Assembly: GCA_027943245.1 (NCBI GenBank)
Contig: JANDJZ010000113.1
Coordinates: 41,001 to 105,000, forward strand
Length of the DNA stretch: 64,000 nucleotides
Reading direction: 5' to 3'
Source: Acanthamoeba sp. SK_2022b
Lineage: Eukaryota; Discosea; Longamoebia; Acanthamoebidae
Shown piece after piece: positions 102 to 13,600 of the stretch (its first letter is position 1; each line of letters begins with the position of its first letter). The notes under the pieces are model-generated. The model was not told the origin of the DNA. It did not search any database and saw only the letters and a list, made by a program, of their open reading frames with translations. The position numbers and the translations under genes were made by a program.

Positions 102-1127
102 TCATTTTTTGAACAGGCCAGCGCTGCGCAGCTTGTTGAAGCGGGCTCGCGTGAGCGCGTCGGGGCCGCACTGTCGGAGGAAGGGCAGCAGGAGCTGGGG
201 GTGCAGCGTGAAGCCGCCCTCCTCTCCCCTCGCACGAAGCACGCGCTCGAGGAAGTCCGCCGCCTCCTTCCTCTGCTTCCTCTGCGCGCAGTCGGCTGCA
301 CGACGTCGCTTGGATCAATCGAACAAGAAGACGGACATGATGATGATGATGACGATATTATTACTGGTGATGGTGAAGATGGTGGAGGTGACGCTAGGTA
401 CCGAGGTAGGGCTCGATGAAGTGGGTGGGACGGTAGGCCAGCTTGTTGCTGTGGAGGAAGCGGGTCAGGGCGATCAGCGACTCGATGTGGTCGCGCACGA
501 TCTCGGGCTTGGCCGGGACCTGGTCGAGGAAGCGCGCGATGCAGAGGCCGGTCTCCTCGTCGAGCGGCTGGCCCAGACGCTCCATCCGCGCGCACACGTC
601 GGCCATCTCGCGCACGCGGCCACGGTCGAGGAGCGCCTTGGCGTATGTGAAGTACAGTCGGGCGTCGACGGCCACATTGTCCGCCTCCATGGCGTCGAGC
701 TGGGCCACGGCGCCCTCGATGTCGTTCATCTCGGCGTAGGCCGACACGAGCAGGTTGTAGTGCTGAATGTCGGGGCGAAGCTTGTTTCGCTTGAGAACCT
801 CGAAGAGCTGGATGGCCGCGTCGGGCCGGCCTCGCTTGATATTGGCCTGCAGAAGCGGCGTGTAGGTGCGCTCGTCGGGCTTCACGCGGTGATGAGGCCG
901 CAGGGTGCCGTAGTGGGCAAAGGCCTCGTCGAATCGGCCCTGCTTGACCAACTGGGTGATGATGACGTTGTGGCTGGCGATCGATGGCTTTACTCCAAAC
1001 GAGCGGGCCATCACGTCGACCACCTTGATGGCGTTTTCGTGCTTGCCCACGTTAAATAAACATTCGATGAGGATGGCCATAATGTGCTCGTCCACCTTGA
1101 CCTGCCCAGACATTCGACAACACACAC

Positions 1128-1194
<67 letters not shown>

Positions 1195-2192
1195 TTTCAA
1201 TGTCGCTTGAGCAACGAGCGAGAACAACCACGAATCGAGAAGGGCGAGGCTAACCTTGTTCTCGAACATCTCTTGTATCACCCTCTGACAGTTATCTGAA
1301 TCGCCCTGCTTCGCGTAGGCGTTCATCAGCGTCGCGTAGCTGTACTTGTCCGGTGTCGAGCCGCAGGCCTGCATGATACCAATCAAATCATTCATGCCTA
1401 TGCGATGCGCGCTGTTAGTGTTGTGGGGCGTGGGGCGAGGTGAGTAGCGTAGTAGTAGTAGTAGAGAGAGAGAGAGAGAGAGACTGTGCGGGCGTGCGTA
1501 CTGTCGATGGCGCCCTGCTTGGAGTAGGCGTCTAGCACGATGTTGAAGACCTGTGGCGTCATCTTGACCCCCTGCGCGTCCATACGGATGAGGAACTGCA
1601 CGCCCTCGCGCAGGAAGTTCAACTGGACCAGCTCTCTGATCAAGGCGCTGTAGGAATACATGGTGCCGCCTGTGTCAGACCACGTCGATCAGACCTAGGG
1701 CGAGCGCAGGCTACACAGGCAAGCGGCCAGTGAGAGAACGCACCGCCGACGCGAGGAAACAAGGCGCACAGCCTCTGAGCCATCTCGGGCTGACGGAAGC
1801 GATCGGGCTGCTCACGGATGAGTTGCCGCAGGGACGCCGGGTGGATGGGAGAGGTGCTGGCCTCCATGTCCTCAAGGCTCATGCGCGGTGGTCGTCCCCT
1901 CTTCTCTCGGTTCATCGCCACGTCCCCTGTAAAGTGGTGCAGGGCCCAACCGGTTGCGCTCCCGTCAGCCCGAACGAGTGCCGCTACGGCCGTGGTGCGC
2001 AGGAAACGGAAAGGAGGAGTAGGGCAGGGCGGTACATAGGCTCTTCTTGGCATGGAGCGTGGCGAAGCTCCTTTGCGCGTGCACCTGGCGGATGCCTGTG
2101 GAAAGCGCCGGTACCAGCCGCAACGCAGCCGCGGAAGGCGAGAGGAGACCAGGCGTGCAACACCGCAACGCTGCGGCACACGAAAGAAGCAT
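102..2192 (-). CDS. Mitochondrial pentatricopeptide repeat (PPR) protein
   Basis: PPR proteins bind organelle RNA in helical-hairpin repeats and act in RNA processing or translation. I read six exons on the minus strand: 2192-2036, 1926-1744, 1669-1502, 1397-1255, 1101-402 and 295-102, all phase-compatible. The product has about eight degenerate 35-residue repeats, for example around YSYATLMNAYAKQGDSDN and DIQHYNLLVSAYAEMNDIEG. The ATG at 2192 opens a roughly 50-residue leader that is rich in Arg, Ser and Ala, poor in acidic residues, and contains RQVHAQRSFATLHAKKS, a typical mitochondrial presequence. A later in-frame ATG at 2053 exists but lacks this leader. The intron at 1254-1102 contains a long TG tract in the sense direction. 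The last exon ends in a basic tail. The PPR call is sure; the exact 5' exon is less so. Confidence 0.82.
1128..1192. repeat. CA dinucleotide microsatellite in PPR intron
   Basis: A near-perfect CA tract (TG on the coding strand) fills much of the intron at 1102-1254. Confidence 0.95.
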
Positions 2193-2595: not shown

Positions 2596-3717
2596 ATGAA
2601 GTCGAGACCCCACACCGACAGCGGGGGTACGGGGAGCGCGCCGAGGAGCTTCGGGTCGAGTTCGTCGTCGCGGTCGCCGTCAACATCGGGTGGCGCGTCT
2701 GCGGGAACGCCGGGCTCGTTCGGCGCAGTCCGGATCGGTGGCGTGGGTGCCCTCAAGGAGCTCGAGGAGACAGCCAAGCTGGGCGACGAGGCCGCCTGGC
2801 GTAGCCTTCTTGATCGCCTACCCAATGTCAACGCAATCTTTCATCTTAACGTACGCTACCCCCCACATTTCTTTTCTTTTTCGTTCTTTTTATCGCGACA
2901 GCCCCCCTCCCCTTCTCGCTTTCGTTCTTTCGTGCACATCAACTCGCGAGATTAGTTGTTCGTCGTCCGTGCGCGGGGCCCCTTTCCCTTTTTACGCTTT
3001 CTTTTTGGCCGCGCGCGTTTTCTCGTTTTGCTGCGCCGTAAGACGCGGCCCTGACCTCGCAACCTGCTCTGTCGCTCGTCTGTCGCCCAAACAGACGGAG
3101 GTACGCACGAGACTCTACGTGCCTCCCTATATGTATTTGTTTCTATCGTTTAGGTTTGCTGACGCGTCATGCGCCTCCGATGCGGCTCTCTGGGAATGCC
3201 TGCTTCAGGAGGTACATTTTACACGCTTGCTCTCTTGGTTGTGAGCAAGAGTATTATATTTGACTTAACCCTTTCCACGCACATGGTATCGATGTGCGTT
3301 GTGGTGTTGGTGATGCATGCGCTAGTGGGTACGCCGTCTCAATACTCGATGCACAATAAAAGACCCTAGCCCTATCTTACCGCCTGTCATGTAACACTTT
3401 GCACACTTCAGCGGACACCTCTGTATGTGGCAGCCGAAGAGGGACGGGCCAGCTTTGTCATCGAACTGCTCCGACGGGGCGCCGAAGTCAACGCTCCTTC
3501 GGTACCTTTCTTCTTCTCTCGCACGCACACACCGCGGCCGCATGCGCCAACCTTGTCCTGATCCTTTCCCGTGCAGAGGGTACGCTCCATGCCTGTGACG
3601 CATTGTCTTTGCCCTGCGCTGCTCTGACTGTGCGAGATCGTGGTCTTGGCGCTCTACATCTCCTCTCCGCTCACGTACACAGAGAGTACCGTCTCCTCCC
3701 GCTTGCTTTTATTACAG

Positions 3718-3749
<32 letters not shown>

Positions 3750-6700
3750 ATTTTGTTTAATTATTCGACGAATTGAGTATTGGTGCACACTCACGTAATG
3801 GCTTTGTGTGTTGTCGTGCAGGTGGTACGCGTTCTTCTTGTTCTTTTGATGTGCGGGCTGGGTCTCACACGTGTGCCCAACGTTCTGTCTCCTCTCTTTC
3901 TTCCGACCCGCCATTTCTCGCCTGGTTCAGAAACGAGTACGCTTTTTCCACTCTCCTCTGCGCATTCCGGTTGTGTTGTGGTAACTAATCTCTTTCGTCC
4001 TCTCCTCTCTCGATCTTCGATGACGTCGGCCGCAGCTGGTACGCAGTGCTCCACCTCATTATCATCATCCACATTATCATCACCACCAGCAGCAGCAACA
4101 AAGCAAAAGCACTGTGCTAACGGCTCTTACGCATCCCTCACTTGCAGGACGTGCGTTGCTCCATCCTTGCCCAGGATGTCCTTCGTGCTGTGCTTTGCTA
4201 ACATTCTGGCCTTGTTCGGGGTTGGTGTGACCGGGCCACGGATTAATTCCCACCAATTAGAATGTACGTGACTCTAAGCTCTTTTCCGATTGGTTACACA
4301 TGACTGACTCGTTTAATGTCTGGCCAGACGGTACGCTTTCACACGCACGGATACTGTTGCTAAGGACCCTAAAAGCGCGTGCTCACTAACCCCCCTACGC
4401 ATGAATCACGCTCTCCGCACTTCTCGCACGTGTTGCATTACCGCCCTCAGTTGGTACGCGCGTGGACTTTCTCGCCTCTTGCTCGACTCCCTGTTCAACC
4501 GTCCACCCCTTTTGCTAATCGCCGGCCGGGTAGGGGGTACGTCTTGGGAGTGAATGAGTGAGTGAATACATGTTCCGTGTCGCAGGACGGACGATCCCTT
4601 TGTTGGGATACGTGATCCGTTTGAACCATCTCCTAATCTCGCTATCTTGTGATGCCCTCATTCGGTGGTGACGCGCGTGTTTCCCGTTCTCTAGGCTGTA
4701 CGTATTTACTCTCTTTGATTCGCTTCGCTTGATCTGGTTTACATTCGCACACACTCACCCGTAAACCTGACAGATTGTACGTGCATCATTCACCTCTCGT
4801 GGGCGCTTCCCTTGATCACTTGTACAAACGCACACTTAACCTATAAAATTTGCCTCTCCGTTATGGTGTGTATCGTCGGCCGCATACACGGGGCTATCGA
4901 TCAACATATCAGCTGGTACGCCATATCGTCTCGAGTTGGTCTCGTCTTGTCTTCGCTTCTTATTCGATGGTGCGCGTGCGGGTATAGGGTGAAGCAGAGC
5001 CGATCCAGCCAACAATGCGAGAAGCAAAAGTGCGTTTTATGTTGTGTTGTGTTGTGTTGTGTTGTGTTGTGTTGTGTTGTGTTGTGTTGTGTTGTGTTGT
5101 GTTGTGTTGTGTGTGGGCATCATTCAAAGAATGGAGAGGCTCAAAAACTAACGACGACACCCACAAACCGCCCAACCTACGCTCTGGACGCCGTAGTATG
5201 TACGTAGCAGCCTCCCGCCGCTGTGTTTGGTTAACGGCCTATTTATTGGTTTGCCCTCTCATTCAGGAGGTACGCTGTCCCCCGAGCCTGGCTGAGCCGA
5301 GTTGAGGAGCTGATGTTATGACGCGCTCTGCTCGCTATTACTATTACTATTGGCACTTCGTTTGATCGTTGCACCAATCCCTGCAGGAGGTAAGCCTATA
5401 CCCTATCACTTTCAAGATGTCTCGCATGTTTGGAAGAGTGGGGCTGATCGGGGGGGGGGGTTGATCGCCCGGGCTCATCTCTTCAAGGAAACCGCGCTTG
5501 ATGCAGCAACGCAAAGGAATCACATGGATATTGCCCTCATCCTTCTCTTTGAAGGCGCCACTGTTGGCAGACGGGTGAGTTTCTCCCTCATGCTGCATGC
5601 TTCTCTGCGTGCGTAAAGTAGCTGAATTCAGATACGGTTCAACCACAGGCGGCCACGGTGTTTGCCAAGCAGCGAGAGCTGTCGCTGGCCGGTCGCGACC
5701 TCACAGCGCTGCCCAAGTGGGTGCGCGATTTTCGAGGGCTGAAGAAGCTCGACCTCTCCGACAATCAGCTCACGGCGCTGCCCACCTACATATCCGATTT
5801 CCGTCACCTCGAGAAGATGGACCTCACTGGCAACCCGCTGCCCAGCATTCCCGTTGAAATCAAACAGCGCCTCGAACGCAGCCTCAAGCCCCTCATGGTT
5901 TACCTCCGCAACCTCAAGATGTACGAATTCACGCACACGCACACGCATACGCACACGCGGGTTATTCACATTGCGCGCGTAAAGGTCGCAAGAGAAGAAG
6001 TGGTCCCGGGTGAAGCTGATGCTGGTGGGCCGAGAGAACGTGGGCAAGACGTCGATACTCAAGTGTCTCCACGCCTTCCTCGACAATCCCAAGATGGTCA
6101 AGAAGCACAAATCCGAAAAGAAGAAGAAAAACTCGCCCAACATACCTCTTCTGAGGTGCGCTCCCTTGAAGGCTTTCGTTTTCTCCCTCTCTCACTCACA
6201 ATCCTTCTGGTATCGTGTGTCGTGGGTCAACGATACCAGCACGGACGGCATTCAAATGGGGCGGCTGTCGACCGAGAATTGGGTGCGTCAAGCCAAGAAG
6301 GGCAGCAAGGGAAAGGAGGTCAAGAGCGATCCCGTCGAGTTCCAGACGTACGACTTTGGCGGGCAGGTGGTGTTCTACCCGACCCACCAGCTCTTCCTCA
6401 CCGCCCGATCGCTGTACATCGTGGTGTTCAACGTCGTCGAGGACGACCGCACGAACGTCCAGTACTGGCTCAAGCAGGTCAAGACATCGACCAAGGGCCT
6501 TGAGGCGCCGATCATCGTCGTTGGCACGCACATCGACCACCCCGACTGTCCCAGCAGCCAGAGCCTCCTCCAAATCGGCAAGCAGATCCAACGGTACACG
6601 ACCCAACGCGCAAACGCGCGCCACTGGTGAATGGTGGAATGTTGTATTGCTGACGATTCAGTGAATTACAGGCAAGACATGAACGTGCGCAAGGTGTGTT

Positions 6701-9167
6701 ACGTAAGCTGCCAGACGGGCGACGGCATCGAGGAGCTTATGGAGGCGATCGTCGACCTGGCCGAGAAGCACAGCTTCCTCAAGCAGACGGTGCCCGAGAG
6801 TTACCACCTGCTCCTCCAAACGATCGACAACCTGCGCAGCGGCAAGTCGCCCGACCCCGCCTCCCTTGCGTTGACGAGCACCTCCGTGTCCATGCCTCTC
6901 ATGCCCACGGGCGAGGTGACCCAGACCGTGTCCCCTCTCTACAGCAGCGAGTCGTTCATCACCTTTAGTCGCGAATCTGCGGCGCAGGTTCGTTGTTCAG
7001 GCGTCCTCTCTTTTTTTCTCTCTCTTCGTTCTTTTAGCTCCTATTTTTTAACTCCTATTGGTCAATGCTGCTAGGAGGGACTCAAGTGGACCACCTGGGA
7101 ACGGATCGAGAAGTTGGGTCGGGGCTGCGGTATTGCTGCGGAGGATCTGGGCGAAGTGGTGCACTTCCTGCACGACGTCGGCACGCTGGTGCATTTCGAC
7201 GACCCGTTCGGCGGGCTGCAGGATCTCGTCGTGATCGATCCGCAGTGGCTGGCCGACGTCATGAAGAGCATCATCTCTTTCAACAACAAGTGGATCAAGA
7301 ACGGCATGATCGCGCAGCGGTACCCTACCGAACACTCCCTCTCCCCACCGTGCGCGGTGGCCAATTTCACCTGTGAGACTGAAGCCCTTCCTCTTTGCTA
7401 AGGGAGCTATTCAACTGGGTGTGGCGTGACTTCCCGCCGCATCTCCACCCGGCGTTGCTGCGCATGTTCGAACGGTTTCAGGTGCCTGGCCCGACTGGCG
7501 CTCTATGAGGTTTGATGGTCGCCCTAACCCGTGTGCACGCGCGCATTTGGGCGTCGGCAGATTTTGTTCCAAATGCGAGTCGAGCAGGTCAAGCACCGGG
7601 AGAGCGCTGACGAGGAGGCGCGCAAGGCGGACGAGGGCGGCTCTGCGGGCGCTGGCGGGCCCAAGGGCAAGCTGTTCATGGTGCCCTCGCTTCTGCCCGA
7701 GGACTGTCCCGCCGATGAGCTGGCCCGAGAGTGGCCTGAGGTGCGGGGCGACGACGTCACCGAGTTTGGGCGCGTGTACGACCTCGGCGATTTCGTGCCG
7801 ATCGGCCTCTTCGCGCGCCTCATCGTGCGCGTGCTTCACATACCGGAGATCAAGCTCATCCTCGCCTGGCGCTCGGGCATCCTCGTAGAGCTCACGTGTC
7901 CCGGCGAGACCGACGACGCGCCGCCGGTGGTCGAGCGCGCGCTCATCCGGCAGCACTCCCGGCCCACTTACCTGTTCGAGCTTCTCGTGCGCACCAACAG
8001 CTCGACCGCGCTGTTCAACCCCGACAACGGCAAGGCCGCGGCCAGAGCCGGTCTGAGCGCCGACCAGAAGGTGCAGCACCTGCTCGCCTCGGGCCTGATG
8101 CGCATCAAGTCCATCAGCCTCTGGCGCATGGCCGATGGCGAGGGCGGGCCCGGCCCGGGCGGTCTCTCCACCCTCCGCCGTAAGGGCCGGCGCACTTCGT
8201 CGTCGATCTCGCAGTCGTCATCGGCGAGCGAGGCCGAGAGCGAGAACGCCCAGCAGCCGCAGGCGGCCGACGACGGCTCACCGCGCCACAGCCACGACGA
8301 GCAGATCCTGCGTGTGGACCTGCTCGAGCACCTGGTCTATGTGCTCGACGTGCTGTTCCAGGGCTACGTCGGGCTCGAGGTGCAGAAGCGTGTCGTGTGC
8401 CTCGCGAGCAACCACAAGAACGGCAAGGTCTGTCGATACGCGTTCGAGTACACCGAGTGCGTCGAGGCCGTCATGGGCGCACGGCCCGTGCGCTGTCCGT
8501 CGCACCGCGGCACGCCGATCCCCATCAGCCGCCTGGCGCCGGACATCGCCATGGGCTCGGTGAGGCTCATCGGCGAGGACGAGCTGCGCAAGCACAACCG
8601 CGTCGGCAAGGGCGGATTCGGTGAGGTCTACAAGGCCACCTGGAACAACTCCACCGTCGCCTTGAAGCTCCTCATCGTACGCTCCCCCCCCATCTCCCTC
8701 TTCCCAGAGGCTCACTGGCCCAACCGACGCTGACCGACCGTTTGTGCGACGCAGAGAATCAAGGAGGAGGACAAGGAGGAGGACGCCAGGAAGTTCGATG
8801 AGTTCAGGCGCGAAGCGTTCTTGATGAGGTGCCGCCATAACTCCCAAATTTTTCCCGGTGCCGTGGCTGACTGCTGTGTATGTGTGTGTTGTTGTTGTTG
8901 TGTGTCCCCTGCAGCTCTCTGCAGCACGATTACGTGATCAGACTGTTCGGCATCTGTCACCACCCGCTGGGAATGGTGATGGAGTACGCGGCTGCCGGCG
9001 ATCTCTATCACTTCCTGGACAACCAACAGAAGGGCCTCGTGCGGCAGACCTATTCGTCCGCCGTCCACCGGTACCCGATCCCGGAGGGCGCGCAGGTTCT
9101 CGAACATCTCCAAAAGGGTAGGCGCCCCCCCCCCCGGACGCCCTATCGTGTGCACGACTTGGCCGCA

Positions 9168-9239
<72 letters not shown>

Positions 9240-9831: not shown

Positions 9832-9894
<63 letters not shown>

Positions 9895-10689: not shown

Positions 10690-13600
10690 ATGGCAGCAGA
10701 GTTGGTGTCGAGTGGGGGGAAAGCAAGCCTGGAAATGGAGGAGCAGCGGCTCACTCAGGCCGTAAAGGCCGGCGAGATCAAGGCGCTTACTGACCTGCTT
10801 GCCGGCGGCATCACCACTCTCAACATCAACTCCCATTTAACCCAGGTTCGCCCCTTCACCTCCCCCCTTGCGAGATTTAATCTTTGAAAACAATAATTTG
10901 CCTTCTTGGGCCAAGCATTTTATTCTCATTCTTTCCTTGACATTGGGCGTGCTCTTTCCTCCAACAGGGACAAGAGGTACGCCTTCACTCAGTGAGCCCC
11001 AAAACGTGGTGCCAGCAGGCTCTCTTCTCACCCCGCTCCTCGTCGATTTCCTTTCGTGGGCTGCCTCTCAACAGAAGGTATGGCGCAACCGCCAATAGTG
11101 CTGTTTTCCCGCACAGTTCCAACATGTCGTCTTTCGTCATTTTGGCCATGTAACACCCGGGTGTATTAACTTTCTATATTTTTATTTGTTTGTTTATTAT
11201 CTTTAACTGTCCTACGTAGTGTACGCCGTTGTATCTGGCGTGTGCCGAGGATGCAGAGAACGTGGTAGACATCGTGAGCGCGCTGCTCGAGAAGGGAGCC
11301 GACATCAATAAGCCATCCGTGCGCTTGCCCTCTCCCTCCTTCCTCTCCTTTTCCGCCTCTAATCCATTTCTATCTCCTCCGCTTGCAGTTGGTACGCGCC
11401 ATGGCCGTGCTCCTCTTCATGCTTGGACCGACCGCACACGCGCCCCGCAATCTCGCTCCACACGCACACTCTGCTAACCTCTTCTCGCTCCATCGCTATC
11501 TCTCTCCCCCTCTCTCTCTCGCCTGCGTTGGTCGTCTACACCGATCGGTGCCTATAGGTGGTGCGTTCCCCTTCCGTGTGCTTCGAAGCGTTGTGGTTTG
11601 TAAAGGCGTGTCACCTTGGTAGCTGACCCTTTGATACACCGTCGGTGGTCATACTCGGTGTCTGTTACTCTATCACTACAGGAGGTACGCGCGGGCAACC
11701 TCCTCTCCGCCTTCTTTGTCGTGTGTCGTGTTTTGTCTGCGTGCGCGCATACGCCAGCTGTCGTGTCCAGAGGCTGCCTCTGCCCCACCTTCACAGTACT
11801 GACCCTTCGATCCCACCGCCCGTGCTTCTCCCGCGCTGTCCGCTCGGCCGCCACAGATGGTGCGCCAACCCGTCCTGACGAATGCGTGATGTTCCCCCTC
11901 GCCTTTGCCGTGCAGCTAGAGTCCAGTCTAATTTGTTGCTTTGCGTGTGTCTGCGCAGAAAGTACGTGATCGCCGCTTTGTCCTTATTAGGTCCACTTTT
12001 TCCGCGTAGTGGGGGTGGACATGTGGGCTAACCTCTCCATCACGCCGCGTCGATTTTGGGTGGACTCTTCTCCTCCTCACAACAGGATGAGGTACATTGG
12101 GCGCTTCTTTCTTCGTCCTTTTCCCCTCCTGCCCTGTGATCTGACATGAAACTCCGTTCCATTCGTTTGGGGGGATATTTGCTTCACTCTTTGCCCGCGT
12201 AGTTCGTACGGCTCCATTCTTGGCACCAGCAAACATGTGTCGACACATTAAATATCTTTTCACAACCACAACGCTAACGGGCACGCTTCTCTCTTCCTCT
12301 CTCTCTCTCTCTCCGCTCTTCGCTATCGACGCATCAAAGGACGTACGTTTGTGCCCTTCCCACCTTTTCATTGTCGGGTGCAAGGACCCTTGAGCATAGA
12401 CTGACTGCAGCGACGGTCACCTTATAATTGGCCATCATCGTCTCCCCTCCCAATCAGGATGTGGTCGTACGTGCTCCCGCCACCTTGTGGCTTTTTTACT
12501 GCACACTGCGTCTGCTAACCTGCTCTCTCTTTCTCTCTCTGTGTGTGTGTATATGTTTGTCTTTATAGAATGCGGTATGTAGAGCCAGCAGTCGGTTGAT
12601 TCTTGGTGACACTATCTCACTAACGCGTGTGCGTATGAACCAGCTGGCCTTGGGTGCGGCGTACGCGGACACGGCAGGCGGCAGCGGCGGCGGCAAGAAG
12701 GTAGAATCCCTCCCGTGTGTTTGCTGTCGACTACAGAGGGTTCTCCTGACAGGCTCTCTTCGCATGGCTGCCTCATGCCTGCCCGCCCACGCACTCCCTA
12801 GCTTGTACGCCGCTTTCTCTCTCCTTCTCTTTTCGCCCCTCCCCCAGCGGACAACGTTTTAACTCCTAACGACCCTTTCGCCACCAGGAGGTAAGTTATT
12901 CTATTTTTTTTTTTTTTTCCAGTTGTGACGATTCGTGGGACAAGCTTGCTGACGCTCCTTCACGTCCCTTCGGCGATCTGTTCGCTCCTTTCTAGAACGT
13001 ACTTAACCCACCCTTTGCTCGCTGTCAGGTTCACAGAGCAGTGCTGACCTCTTGCGCTGGACCACGCACATTTGTGTGCTGTGTGCTGTGACATGTTGTG
13101 ATTTACAGGAGGTACTGTTCTTCTGTTAGGTCGCCTATCATTGGAGGATGTGTTCTAACCCGTAGCGCTGACTCTGCACGAATGGTGCGACCAATACGCA
13201 CAGCTTCCGCTGGATGCGGCGACCCACAACCGCAATCTGGAGCTCTCTTTGCTGCTTCTCAACAACGGATCCAAGATGACGAGCAAGGTGCACACGCTTT
13301 GCCATATCACGTGCCATGACCCCGCTCCCGACTAACCACGACCACGCTTCAGTCGGCTGCGCGACTCCGCAAGGTGAAGCAGCTGAGCCTGGCGGGCGCG
13401 GAGCTCACGGTGGTGCCGGCGTGGCTCGAGGAGTTCAAGGGCCTGCGCCAGCTGGACCTGTCCGACAACAAGCTCACCACCTTGCCGACCTTCCTGGCCA
13501 ACATCAAGGGCCTCGTCAAGCTCGACATCGCCGGCAACCCGCTCGAGTCGATTCCCTCCGAGGTCAAGGGCGGCTCGCTCAAGGGCATCCTCGTTTACCT

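What the first reader, a model, noticed from the sequence alone, without database searches (positions are those of the whole stretch)
2851..5487. Run of single-codon microexons spelling ankyrin sequence in ROCO1
Directly seen: AG, then 3 nt (twice 6 nt), then GTACGY or close variants, about 20 times, with ordinary intron spacing. By chance GTACG occurs about once per kb, so this many, almost all with AG exactly a codon multiple upstream, is very unlikely. The lengths keep the frame, and the first set completes a normal ankyrin start (TEEW then RTPLYVAAEEG). If confirmed, an ankyrin region would be encoded mostly one residue per exon, which demands extraordinary splicing precision. Alternatives: recursive splice points in one long intron, or insertions of intron-like elements.
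Basis: partly seen in the sequence, partly recalled or inferred. Interest (0 to 1): 0.93.

Follow-up and report, generated by a model that had tools for sequence, protein, structure and literature searches.

The report
Arrays of single-codon exons, Acanthamoeba ROCO genes
In four related amoeba kinase genes, loops between ankyrin repeats appear to be encoded by long runs of exons only one codon long, and two apparently spliced sequences from close relatives contain nineteen of these tiny exons joined in the predicted order.

Summary
ROCO1 (ATG 2596) is modelled with 19 exons of 3 or 6 nt (17 single codons) between 2851 and 5487, each YAG|codon|GT, mostly GTACG, separated by introns of 64-281 nt. 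The same layout is modelled in three more ROCO paralogs of this genome: ROCO2 in the window and two on other contigs. In all: 61 exons of 18 nt or less, 51 of them single codons. Thirteen strict sites lie in 2.6 kb where the genome-wide density predicts 0.03. Of 42 GTACG with a YAG within 12 nt, 41 are a codon multiple away (background 47 of 125). Decisive: after the models were fixed, a database protein from an unnamed close relative (P0266) read TE-E-W-[exon]-R-R-V-KR-L-D-N-T-L-G, then ran into the next intron. A second (P0283) did so for six ROCO4 microexons. So 19 microexons (16 single-codon) are seen joined; 42 are predicted only. There is no genome-wide excess of such sites. Microexon residues are not significantly conserved between paralogs, and Pfam's Ank_2 prefers the proteins without them. 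Stepwise, intron-defined splicing is the likely mechanism. How the arrays arose, and whether they do anything, is unknown.

The parts
2596..2850 (+). ROCO1 exon 1, ends ...NVNAIFHLN
   Evidence: P0266 covers its end
3095..3100 (+). microexon 1, ACGGAG (TE)
   Evidence: in P0266
3209..3211 (+). microexon 2, GAG (E)
   Evidence: in P0266
3326..3328 (+). microexon 3, TGG (W)
   Evidence: in P0266
3412..3501 (+). ROCO1 ankyrin exon RTPLYVAAEEG...NAPS
   Evidence: in P0266
3577..3579 (+). microexon 4, AGG (R)
   Evidence: in P0266
3683..3685 (+). microexon 5, AGA (R)
   Evidence: in P0266
3822..3824 (+). microexon 6, GTG (V)
   Evidence: in P0266
3931..3936 (+). microexon 7, AAACGA (KR)
   Evidence: in P0266
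4036..4038 (+). microexon 8, CTG (L)
   Evidence: in P0266
4148..4150 (+). microexon 9, GAC (D)
   Evidence: in P0266
4261..4263 (+). microexon 10, AAT (N)
   Evidence: in P0266
4328..4330 (+). microexon 11, ACG (T)
   Evidence: in P0266
4451..4453 (+). microexon 12, TTG (L)
   Evidence: in P0266
4534..4536 (+). microexon 13, GGG (G)
   Evidence: in P0266
4537..4694 (+). 158-nt intron whose counterpart is read through in P0266 (...G-VRLSEA; here G-VRLGSE then TGA)
4695..4697 (+). microexon 14, GCT (A), predicted only
4774..4776 (+). microexon 15, ATT (I), predicted only
4913..4915 (+). microexon 16, CTG (L), predicted only
5197..5199 (+). microexon 17, TAT (Y), predicted only; follows a 281-nt intron with a (GTGTT)n run
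5267..5269 (+). microexon 18, GAG (E), predicted only
5387..5389 (+). microexon 19, GAG (E), predicted only
5488..5574 (+). ROCO1 ankyrin exon ETALDAATQRN...VGRR
5649..9115 (+). rest of ROCO1 as far as modelled (LRR, Roc, COR, start of kinase), introns of mixed phase
10690..10845 (+). ROCO2 (tandem paralog) exon 1, ends ...NINSHLTQ
10968..11077 (+). ROCO2 microexons 10968-10976 (GQE) and 11075-11077 (K), predicted only
11220..11318 (+). ROCO2 ankyrin exon CTPLYLACAED...NKPS
11389..12574 (+). ROCO2 microexons, predicted only: L 11389, V 11558, E 11682, M 11857, K 11959, DE 12086-12091, F 12203, D 12340-12342, DVV 12458-12466, NA 12569-12574
12644..12700 (+). 57-nt exon inside the ROCO2 array, LALGAAYADTAGGSGGGKK, predicted only
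12802..13111 (+). ROCO2 microexons, predicted only: L 12802-12804, E 12888-12890, N 12996-12998, E 13109-13111
13204..13287 (+). ROCO2 ankyrin exon LPLDAATHNRN...TSK
   Evidence: read by eye; one search flagged the wrong start 13210, corrected's script; shown

Best explanation
In four ROCO (LRRK2-like) kinase genes of an Acanthamoeba or close relative, loops between ankyrin repeats are encoded by arrays of coding microexons, mostly one codon each, separated by introns of about 100 nt. Shown: the site arrangement, codon-multiple lengths, branch-point-like motifs, and in-order presence of 13 microexon products in a ROCO1 ortholog and 6 in a ROCO4 ortholog. Inferred: those two sequences are spliced RNA; the introns are removed one by one by intron definition; after each step the codon just added is the end of the upstream exon, next to a fresh GTACG-type 5' splice site, so the array is spliced like a ratchet that leaves one codon per step. 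Inferred: frame, splice signals and absence of stops are what is constrained, and the ankyrin loop tolerates the residues. A retained intron ends the reading frame, as both public sequences show.
For: P0266 (80/86 identical to the ROCO1 model) holds TE,E,W,R,R,V,KR,L,D,N,T,L,G in order and then enters the 158-nt intron. P0283 (69/71 to ROCO4) holds EM,E,R,G,R,R and then enters the 240-nt intron. The models were fixed before. 0 of 22 microexon residues differ, against 3 of 128 others, first residue of P0266 and the intron-derived tails left out. 41 of 42 YAG-GTACG distances up to 12 nt are multiples of 3; background 47 of 125. CTNAY motif in 57 of 72 microexon-flanking introns, 12 of 72 on their reverse complement. 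0 stops in 77 microexon codons. Only 2 of 61 microexons begin with GT, so nearly all cannot be removed by re-splicing at their own start. Four paralogs share the layout.
Against: Joined-sequence support covers 19 of 61 microexons: none in ROCO2 or ROCO3, none of ROCO1's last six, 6 of ROCO4's 17. I could not see the DNA, species or library type of the two supporting contigs; that they are cDNA is inferred from their running into intron sequence at predicted junctions. Each shows an unspliced intron. Microexon residues are not significantly conserved between paralogs (of six pairs the best has 64 of 1000 shuffles at or above it). For Pfam Ank_2 all four proteins score higher with the microexons left out, and ROCO1, 2 and 4 gain little or lose with most other ankyrin models. 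The zero-stop count is weak given G-rich third positions. Genome-wide counts show no excess of the motif over the in-frame control.
Confidence: 0.93

Rival explanations
1. Recursive splicing points inside two long introns (561 and 1986 nt), removed without leaving codons.
For: Without microexons the first ROCO1 loop has the usual ankyrin length by my count (6 residues) and Ank_2 scores are higher in all four proteins; the layout resembles ratchet points.
Against: Distances are 3, 6 or 9 nt, not 0, in 41 of 42 cases. Only 2 of 61 start with GT. P0266 and P0283 contain the codons.
Confidence: 0.03
2. The arrays are alternative: some transcripts include all codons, others skip blocks, giving loops of variable length as a regulated product. 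Compatible with the best explanation.
For: In the models all microexons and ankyrin exons are multiples of 3 in phase 0, so any subset keeps frame. Both public sequences carry a retained intron.
Against: No skipped form appeared among the 120 best proteins listed by each of three searches, but only two informative sequences exist.
Confidence: 0.2
3. Arrays grew by repeated insertion or tandem duplication of intron-like units. Compatible with the best explanation.
For: Uniform phase and similar intron size; one 51-nt, 84% match between the 240-nt and the 118-nt ROCO4 introns (E 1.7e-9; score 60 against a maximum of 30 in three shuffled sets).
Against: Eight of the 12 listed intron pairs exceed 30, but of the four alignments shown the other three are CT-rich; with low-complexity filtering the next best match is 18 nt, E 0.002. 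No intron family is seen.
Confidence: 0.3
4. Chance or a DNA motif unrelated to splicing.
For: Genome-wide YAGN3GTACGY (940) does not exceed the in-frame control YAGN12GTACGY (958), and the reversed-pattern control is higher (1517).
Against: 13 sites where 0.028 expected, Poisson P 8e-31; branch motifs; P0266.
Confidence: 0.01

Closest known systems
Schistosome micro-exon genes (MEGs)
   Same: Genes with 10 to 20 consecutive very short, mostly 3n-long exons that automatic annotation struggles with (PMC10526429, abstract and passages).
   Different: Most MEG exons are 15 bp and the minimum is 6 bp in that paper's results (its abstract says 3-81), introns to 5 kb, secreted proteins. Here 51 of 61 are 3 nt, introns about 100 nt, in ankyrin loops of a kinase family.
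Isolated ultra-short exons: 3-nt mouse Ncam, 1-nt Arabidopsis APC11, 1-nt Fusarium CYP621A
   Same: Exons of 1-3 nt; [quoted passage not shown] PMC4674806 passages; PMC12940212 abstract).
   Different: Reported as single exons; here up to 16 modelled microexons (10 seen joined) follow one another in one loop.
Adjacent microexons: RPS24 (three), rice Os08t0562700 (5 and 12 nt)
   Same: Several neighbouring microexons in one gene (PMC11162997 and PMC12686416, search listing; PMC8831610 passages).
   Different: Two or three, not runs of single codons. The 'clusters' of PMC8831610 are families across species.
Recursive splicing at ratchet points in flies
   Same: Long introns removed in steps at juxtaposed 3' and 5' splice sites (PMC8605326 and PMC6110457, search listing).
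   Different: That nothing is left in the mRNA there is recalled; here each step leaves a codon.

Membership tests
Coding microexons | Internal exon of 30 nt or less between functional splice sites, joined into coding sequence | tested here: met
   61 modelled; 19 present in order in P0266 and P0283
Coding microexons | Inclusion in mRNA of this very organism | not testable with these tools
   no RNA data; support comes from close relatives
Schistosome-type micro-exon gene | Most of the coding sequence in microexons, secreted product | tested here: not met
   Microexons lie only in the ankyrin loops; most of the 1107 modelled residues are in ordinary exons. Secretion not tested
Recursive splicing at zero-length exons | 3' splice site directly abutting a 5' splice site, nothing retained | tested here: not met
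   distances 3, 6, 9; codons retained
Introner-derived introns | Many introns share sequence | tested here: not met
   72 introns all against all; one pair stands out that is not simple sequence
ROCO proteins | Roc GTPase followed by COR, with LRR and kinase | tested here: met
   ROCO1 model: Roc 61.1 bits, COR-A 69.3, COR-B 30.1, kinase 63.1, LRR_8 27.5, Ank 31.6, each above Pfam's cut-off; Ank_2 26.2 is below its 27.3. ROCO2-4 were not scanned beyond the ankyrins

The most novel reading that the evidence does not exclude
A 'codon ratchet': a spliceosome working by intron definition crosses stretches of up to 2 kb in about 100-nt steps, each step adding exactly one amino acid, so that a protein loop is written one residue per intron. 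The layout was inherited by four ROCO paralogs and makes expression of these kinases depend on finishing some 20 consecutive splicing steps.
Probability: 0.5. Interest if true: 0.95.

Novelty: new variant of a known kind. Interest (0 to 1): 0.9.

Why it matters
Single exons of 1-3 nt are known as rarities. A run of ten microexons, nine of them single codons, joined in one sequence is a far harder test of how spliceosomes order and pair splice sites. It offers a natural substrate for measuring splicing order and fidelity, bears on intron-gain models (in the models all 72 flanking introns share one phase), and suggests why annotation truncates such genes: the A. castellanii Neff protein P0002 begins M-V-Q directly before the ROCO4 exon that follows the array.

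Tried and rejected
Pfam scoring with and without microexons (for ROCO2 the 57-nt exon was left out too) was mixed, and I do not use it as support. With microexons ROCO3 gains in Ank, Ank_3, Ank_4 and Ank_5 and loses in Ank_2 (77.5 against 91.6). Ank_2 falls in ROCO1 (32.1 against 36.7), ROCO2 (29.5 against 34.0) and ROCO4 (63.6 against 89.8); Ank_4 also falls in ROCO1 and ROCO4. A shuffle test for conservation of microexon residues between paralogs was not significant in any of six pairs, although linker 1 of ROCO1 (HLN-TE-E-W-R) and ROCO4 (HLYQTE-EM-E-R) look alike by eye.

A genome survey for more arrays was only partial. Pair patterns gave 118 and 128 hits, with reversed-pattern controls of 323 and 310, and only the first places were listed. 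Triple patterns gave none for 60-90/60-90 (control 0) and one, ROCO1 itself, for 52-82/83-113 (control 3); the 83-113/83-113 triple did not complete. The single motif gave 940 (N3), 831 (N4) and 958 (N12), with reversed controls of 1517, 1181 and 1370. So further arrays elsewhere are not excluded. Among fetched loci a relaxed pattern flagged, besides ROCO loci, only L013, which by eye looks like an ordinary gene on the other strand. C67 had two close strict sites; its locus L002 was not flagged.

P0001, a 1813-aa ROCO protein on a 5602-base contig, was meant as a cDNA control; its own-genome search did not complete. Against the window and L062-L065, the only loci compared, it is not a near-identical product. 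Structure prediction was not tried because spliced proteins are not read letter for letter from the DNA.

My first ROCO2 and ROCO4 models had wrong exon edges, corrected; the start of ROCO2's last ankyrin exon went from 13166 to 13210 to 13204. One search's ROCO2 protein still carries the wrong start; alignments A1 and A3 use the corrected text. Notes 1 and 2 hold rough coordinates (for example 5193 for 5197). A possible 15-nt exon in the 240-nt ROCO4 intron was left out of all counts.
Full report
It belongs to an Acanthamoeba or close relative: the ROCO4 model of this genome is 94% identical over 159 residues to an A. castellanii Neff protein, P0002.

Observation. Reading the sequence and splicing it gives a ROCO1 gene starting at 2596. 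Exon 1 ends at 2850. Then come TE (3095-3100), E (3209-3211), W (3326-3328), the ankyrin exon 3412-3501, sixteen further microexons (R,R,V,KR,L,D,N,T,L,G,A,I,L,Y,E,E) and the ankyrin exon 5488-5574. The introns are GT-AG. The array introns are all phase 0; of the nine downstream introns in the model, four are phase 0 and five phase 2. Pfam finds Ank, LRR_8, Roc, COR-A, COR-B and kinase in the 1107-residue model, which stops inside the kinase.

Chance. YAGNNNGTACGY occurs 940 times on the two strands of the genome. That predicts 0.028 in 2637 bases of one strand; 13 are found, Poisson P 8e-31. In the four array spans 46 GTACG were examined; 42 have a YAG within 12 nt upstream: 36 at 3 nt, 3 at 6, 2 at 9 and 1 at 1. 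Among 419 GTACG from other loci and the rest of the window, 125 have one within 12 nt, 47 of them at a multiple of 3 and 20 at exactly 3. Genome-wide, N3 (940) does not exceed the in-frame control N12 (958); N4 gives 831; the tool's reversed-pattern controls are higher for all three (1517, 1370, 1181) and differ in make-up. So the signal belongs to these loci, not to the genome at large.

Relatives in the same genome. Three further ROCO genes carry the same layout: ROCO2, directly downstream in the window; ROCO3 on C478 (L062, minus strand); ROCO4 on C1057 (L065, minus strand). Models (ROCO2's last exon as corrected): ROCO2 NINSHLTQ|GQE|K|CTPLYLA..NKPS|L|V|E|M|K|DE|F|D|DVV|NA|LALGAAYADTAGGSGGGKK|L|E|N|E|LPLDAAT; ROCO3 INGYY|N|G|M|TALHWA..NVTE|E|Q|G|PE|TPLHYA..DAPG|W|D|YQTPLELA; ROCO4 VNHLYQTE|EM|E|R|TPLYLA..NAET|G|R|R|L|DD|S|M|T|D|M|T|RETPFHAA..NIMPMT|R|EMGVAM|E|GPIELCA. 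Together they hold 61 exons of 18 nt or less (19, 16, 9 and 17), 51 of them 3 nt. By my count on these models, inclusion gives ROCO3 loops of 5, 7 and 6 residues between the VNA-type motif and the next T, near the usual six (recalled), against 2, 2 and 4 without. In ROCO1, 2 and 4 inclusion makes loops longer than usual (9 to 40) and exclusion gives 3 to 6. Two other ROCO-like loci, C1102 and C498, have few such sites, and C1102 has one continuous tblastn match to ankyrin repeats of P0001.

Intron quality. 72 modelled introns flank a microexon. They run from 64 to 281 nt, median 103; 13 ordinary introns of these genes run from 64 to 131. CTNAY lies 8-70 nt from the 3' end in 57 of 72, against 12 of 72 on the reverse complement; for the ordinary introns it is 8 of 13 against 2. 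GTACG opens 45 of 72, but sites were chosen partly by that pattern. The 77 microexon codons contain no stop; with their G-rich third positions that is weak. Codon make-up (first base G or A, last base G) resembles exon edges, so splice signals may dictate many of the residues.

Transcript-level test. Three protein searches were made; each listed only its best 120. The first (ROCO1, 1107 aa; 603 proteins) and second (N-terminal alignment; 152 proteins) listed no relative covering an array. The third (ankyrin alignment that includes the predicted microexon residues; 928 proteins) listed P0266. It reads MGALKELEE...NANAIFHLN TE E W RTPLYVAAEEG...NAPS R R V KR L D N T L G VRLSEA and ends. The last six residues look like the opening of the 158-nt intron (here GGG|GTACGTCTTGGGAGTGAATGA, G-VRLGSE-stop). 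A BLAST of all 358 listed proteins against the four models found a second, P0283: a ROCO4 ortholog with EM, E, R, G, R, R, then VSGFDA, like the opening of the 240-nt intron (here AGG|GTAAGTGGCTCATGA, VSGS-stop). Of the predicted microexons up to the retained intron, 13 of 13 and 6 of 6 are present, with none extra. 0 of 22 microexon residues and 3 of 128 other residues differ; the first residue of P0266 and the intron-derived tails were left out. A genomic contig cannot give this reading unless its upstream introns are absent; in that case the codons would still be coding. I could not see the contigs' DNA, species or library type.

Mechanism. Exons of 3 nt leave little room for exon definition. 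[quoted passage not shown] With about 100-nt introns, one-at-a-time removal fits. After each step the added codon is the exon end in front of the next 5' splice site. Only 2 of 61 microexons begin with GT, so removal of the codon by re-splicing at its own start is ruled out for nearly all. That both public sequences retain one intron suggests that completing the array is slow or leaky; two sequences do not prove it.

Origin. The layout is shared by the paralogs, but the residues show no significant conservation. A single 51-nt duplicated piece links two ROCO4 introns. Growth by duplication or by fission of a phase-0 intron would keep phase and codon length; insertion of introns into a continuous exon at random would be expected to mix phases. 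This is inference.

Known or not. Full-text searches for Acanthamoeba with microexon (0 papers), 3-nt or single-codon exon terms (9), microexon arrays or clusters (5), microexon with protist and introns (7) and schistosome MEGs (6) showed no description of runs of single-codon exons in their titles and abstract openings; adjacent microexons in small numbers are known (RPS24). I read abstracts or passages of seven papers, so print outside this open-access library, and text that I did not open, is untested. The A. castellanii genome paper reports 6.2 introns per gene, and the passages that I saw mention no microexons (PMC4053784); a 2025 paper on alternative splicing in A. castellanii does not use the word microexon in its main text (PMC12404691).

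Noticed in passing
L065 (C1057) and P0002: The A. castellanii Neff annotation of the ROCO4 ortholog begins MVQ-GPIEL, directly at the exon after the microexon array, so that public protein lacks the ankyrin part modelled here.
   Followed up: partly
12644-12700: A 57-nt exon (LALGAAYADTAGGSGGGKK) is modelled inside the ROCO2 array; its LGA..Y resembles ROCO1's L-G-A-I-L-Y microexons by eye, but the ROCO1-ROCO2 shuffle test was not significant.
   Followed up: partly
L065 about 6723-6709, minus strand: Possible 15-nt exon (WNFQT) inside the 240-nt ROCO4 intron that is retained in P0283.
   Followed up: no
about 1129-1192, 3717-3750, 5036-5113, 9171-9236, 9834-9892: Simple repeats (CA, GTT, GTGTT) in or near introns; the 281-nt ROCO1 intron is lengthened by (GTGTT)n.
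   Followed up: no
about 394-1960, minus strand: By eye, an intron-containing gene with PPR-like repeats, divergent from ROCO1 (open frame 394-1674); no family scan was made.
   Followed up: no
P0001: A 1813-aa ankyrin-LRR-Roc-COR-kinase protein on a 5602-base contig, 38% identical to ROCO1; by its length relative to the contig probably a spliced transcript of another ROCO gene.
   Followed up: partly
P0121: ROCO3 ortholog fragment (90% over 124 residues) on a 3705-base contig that by eye runs into unrelated sequence after the start of Roc.
   Followed up: no
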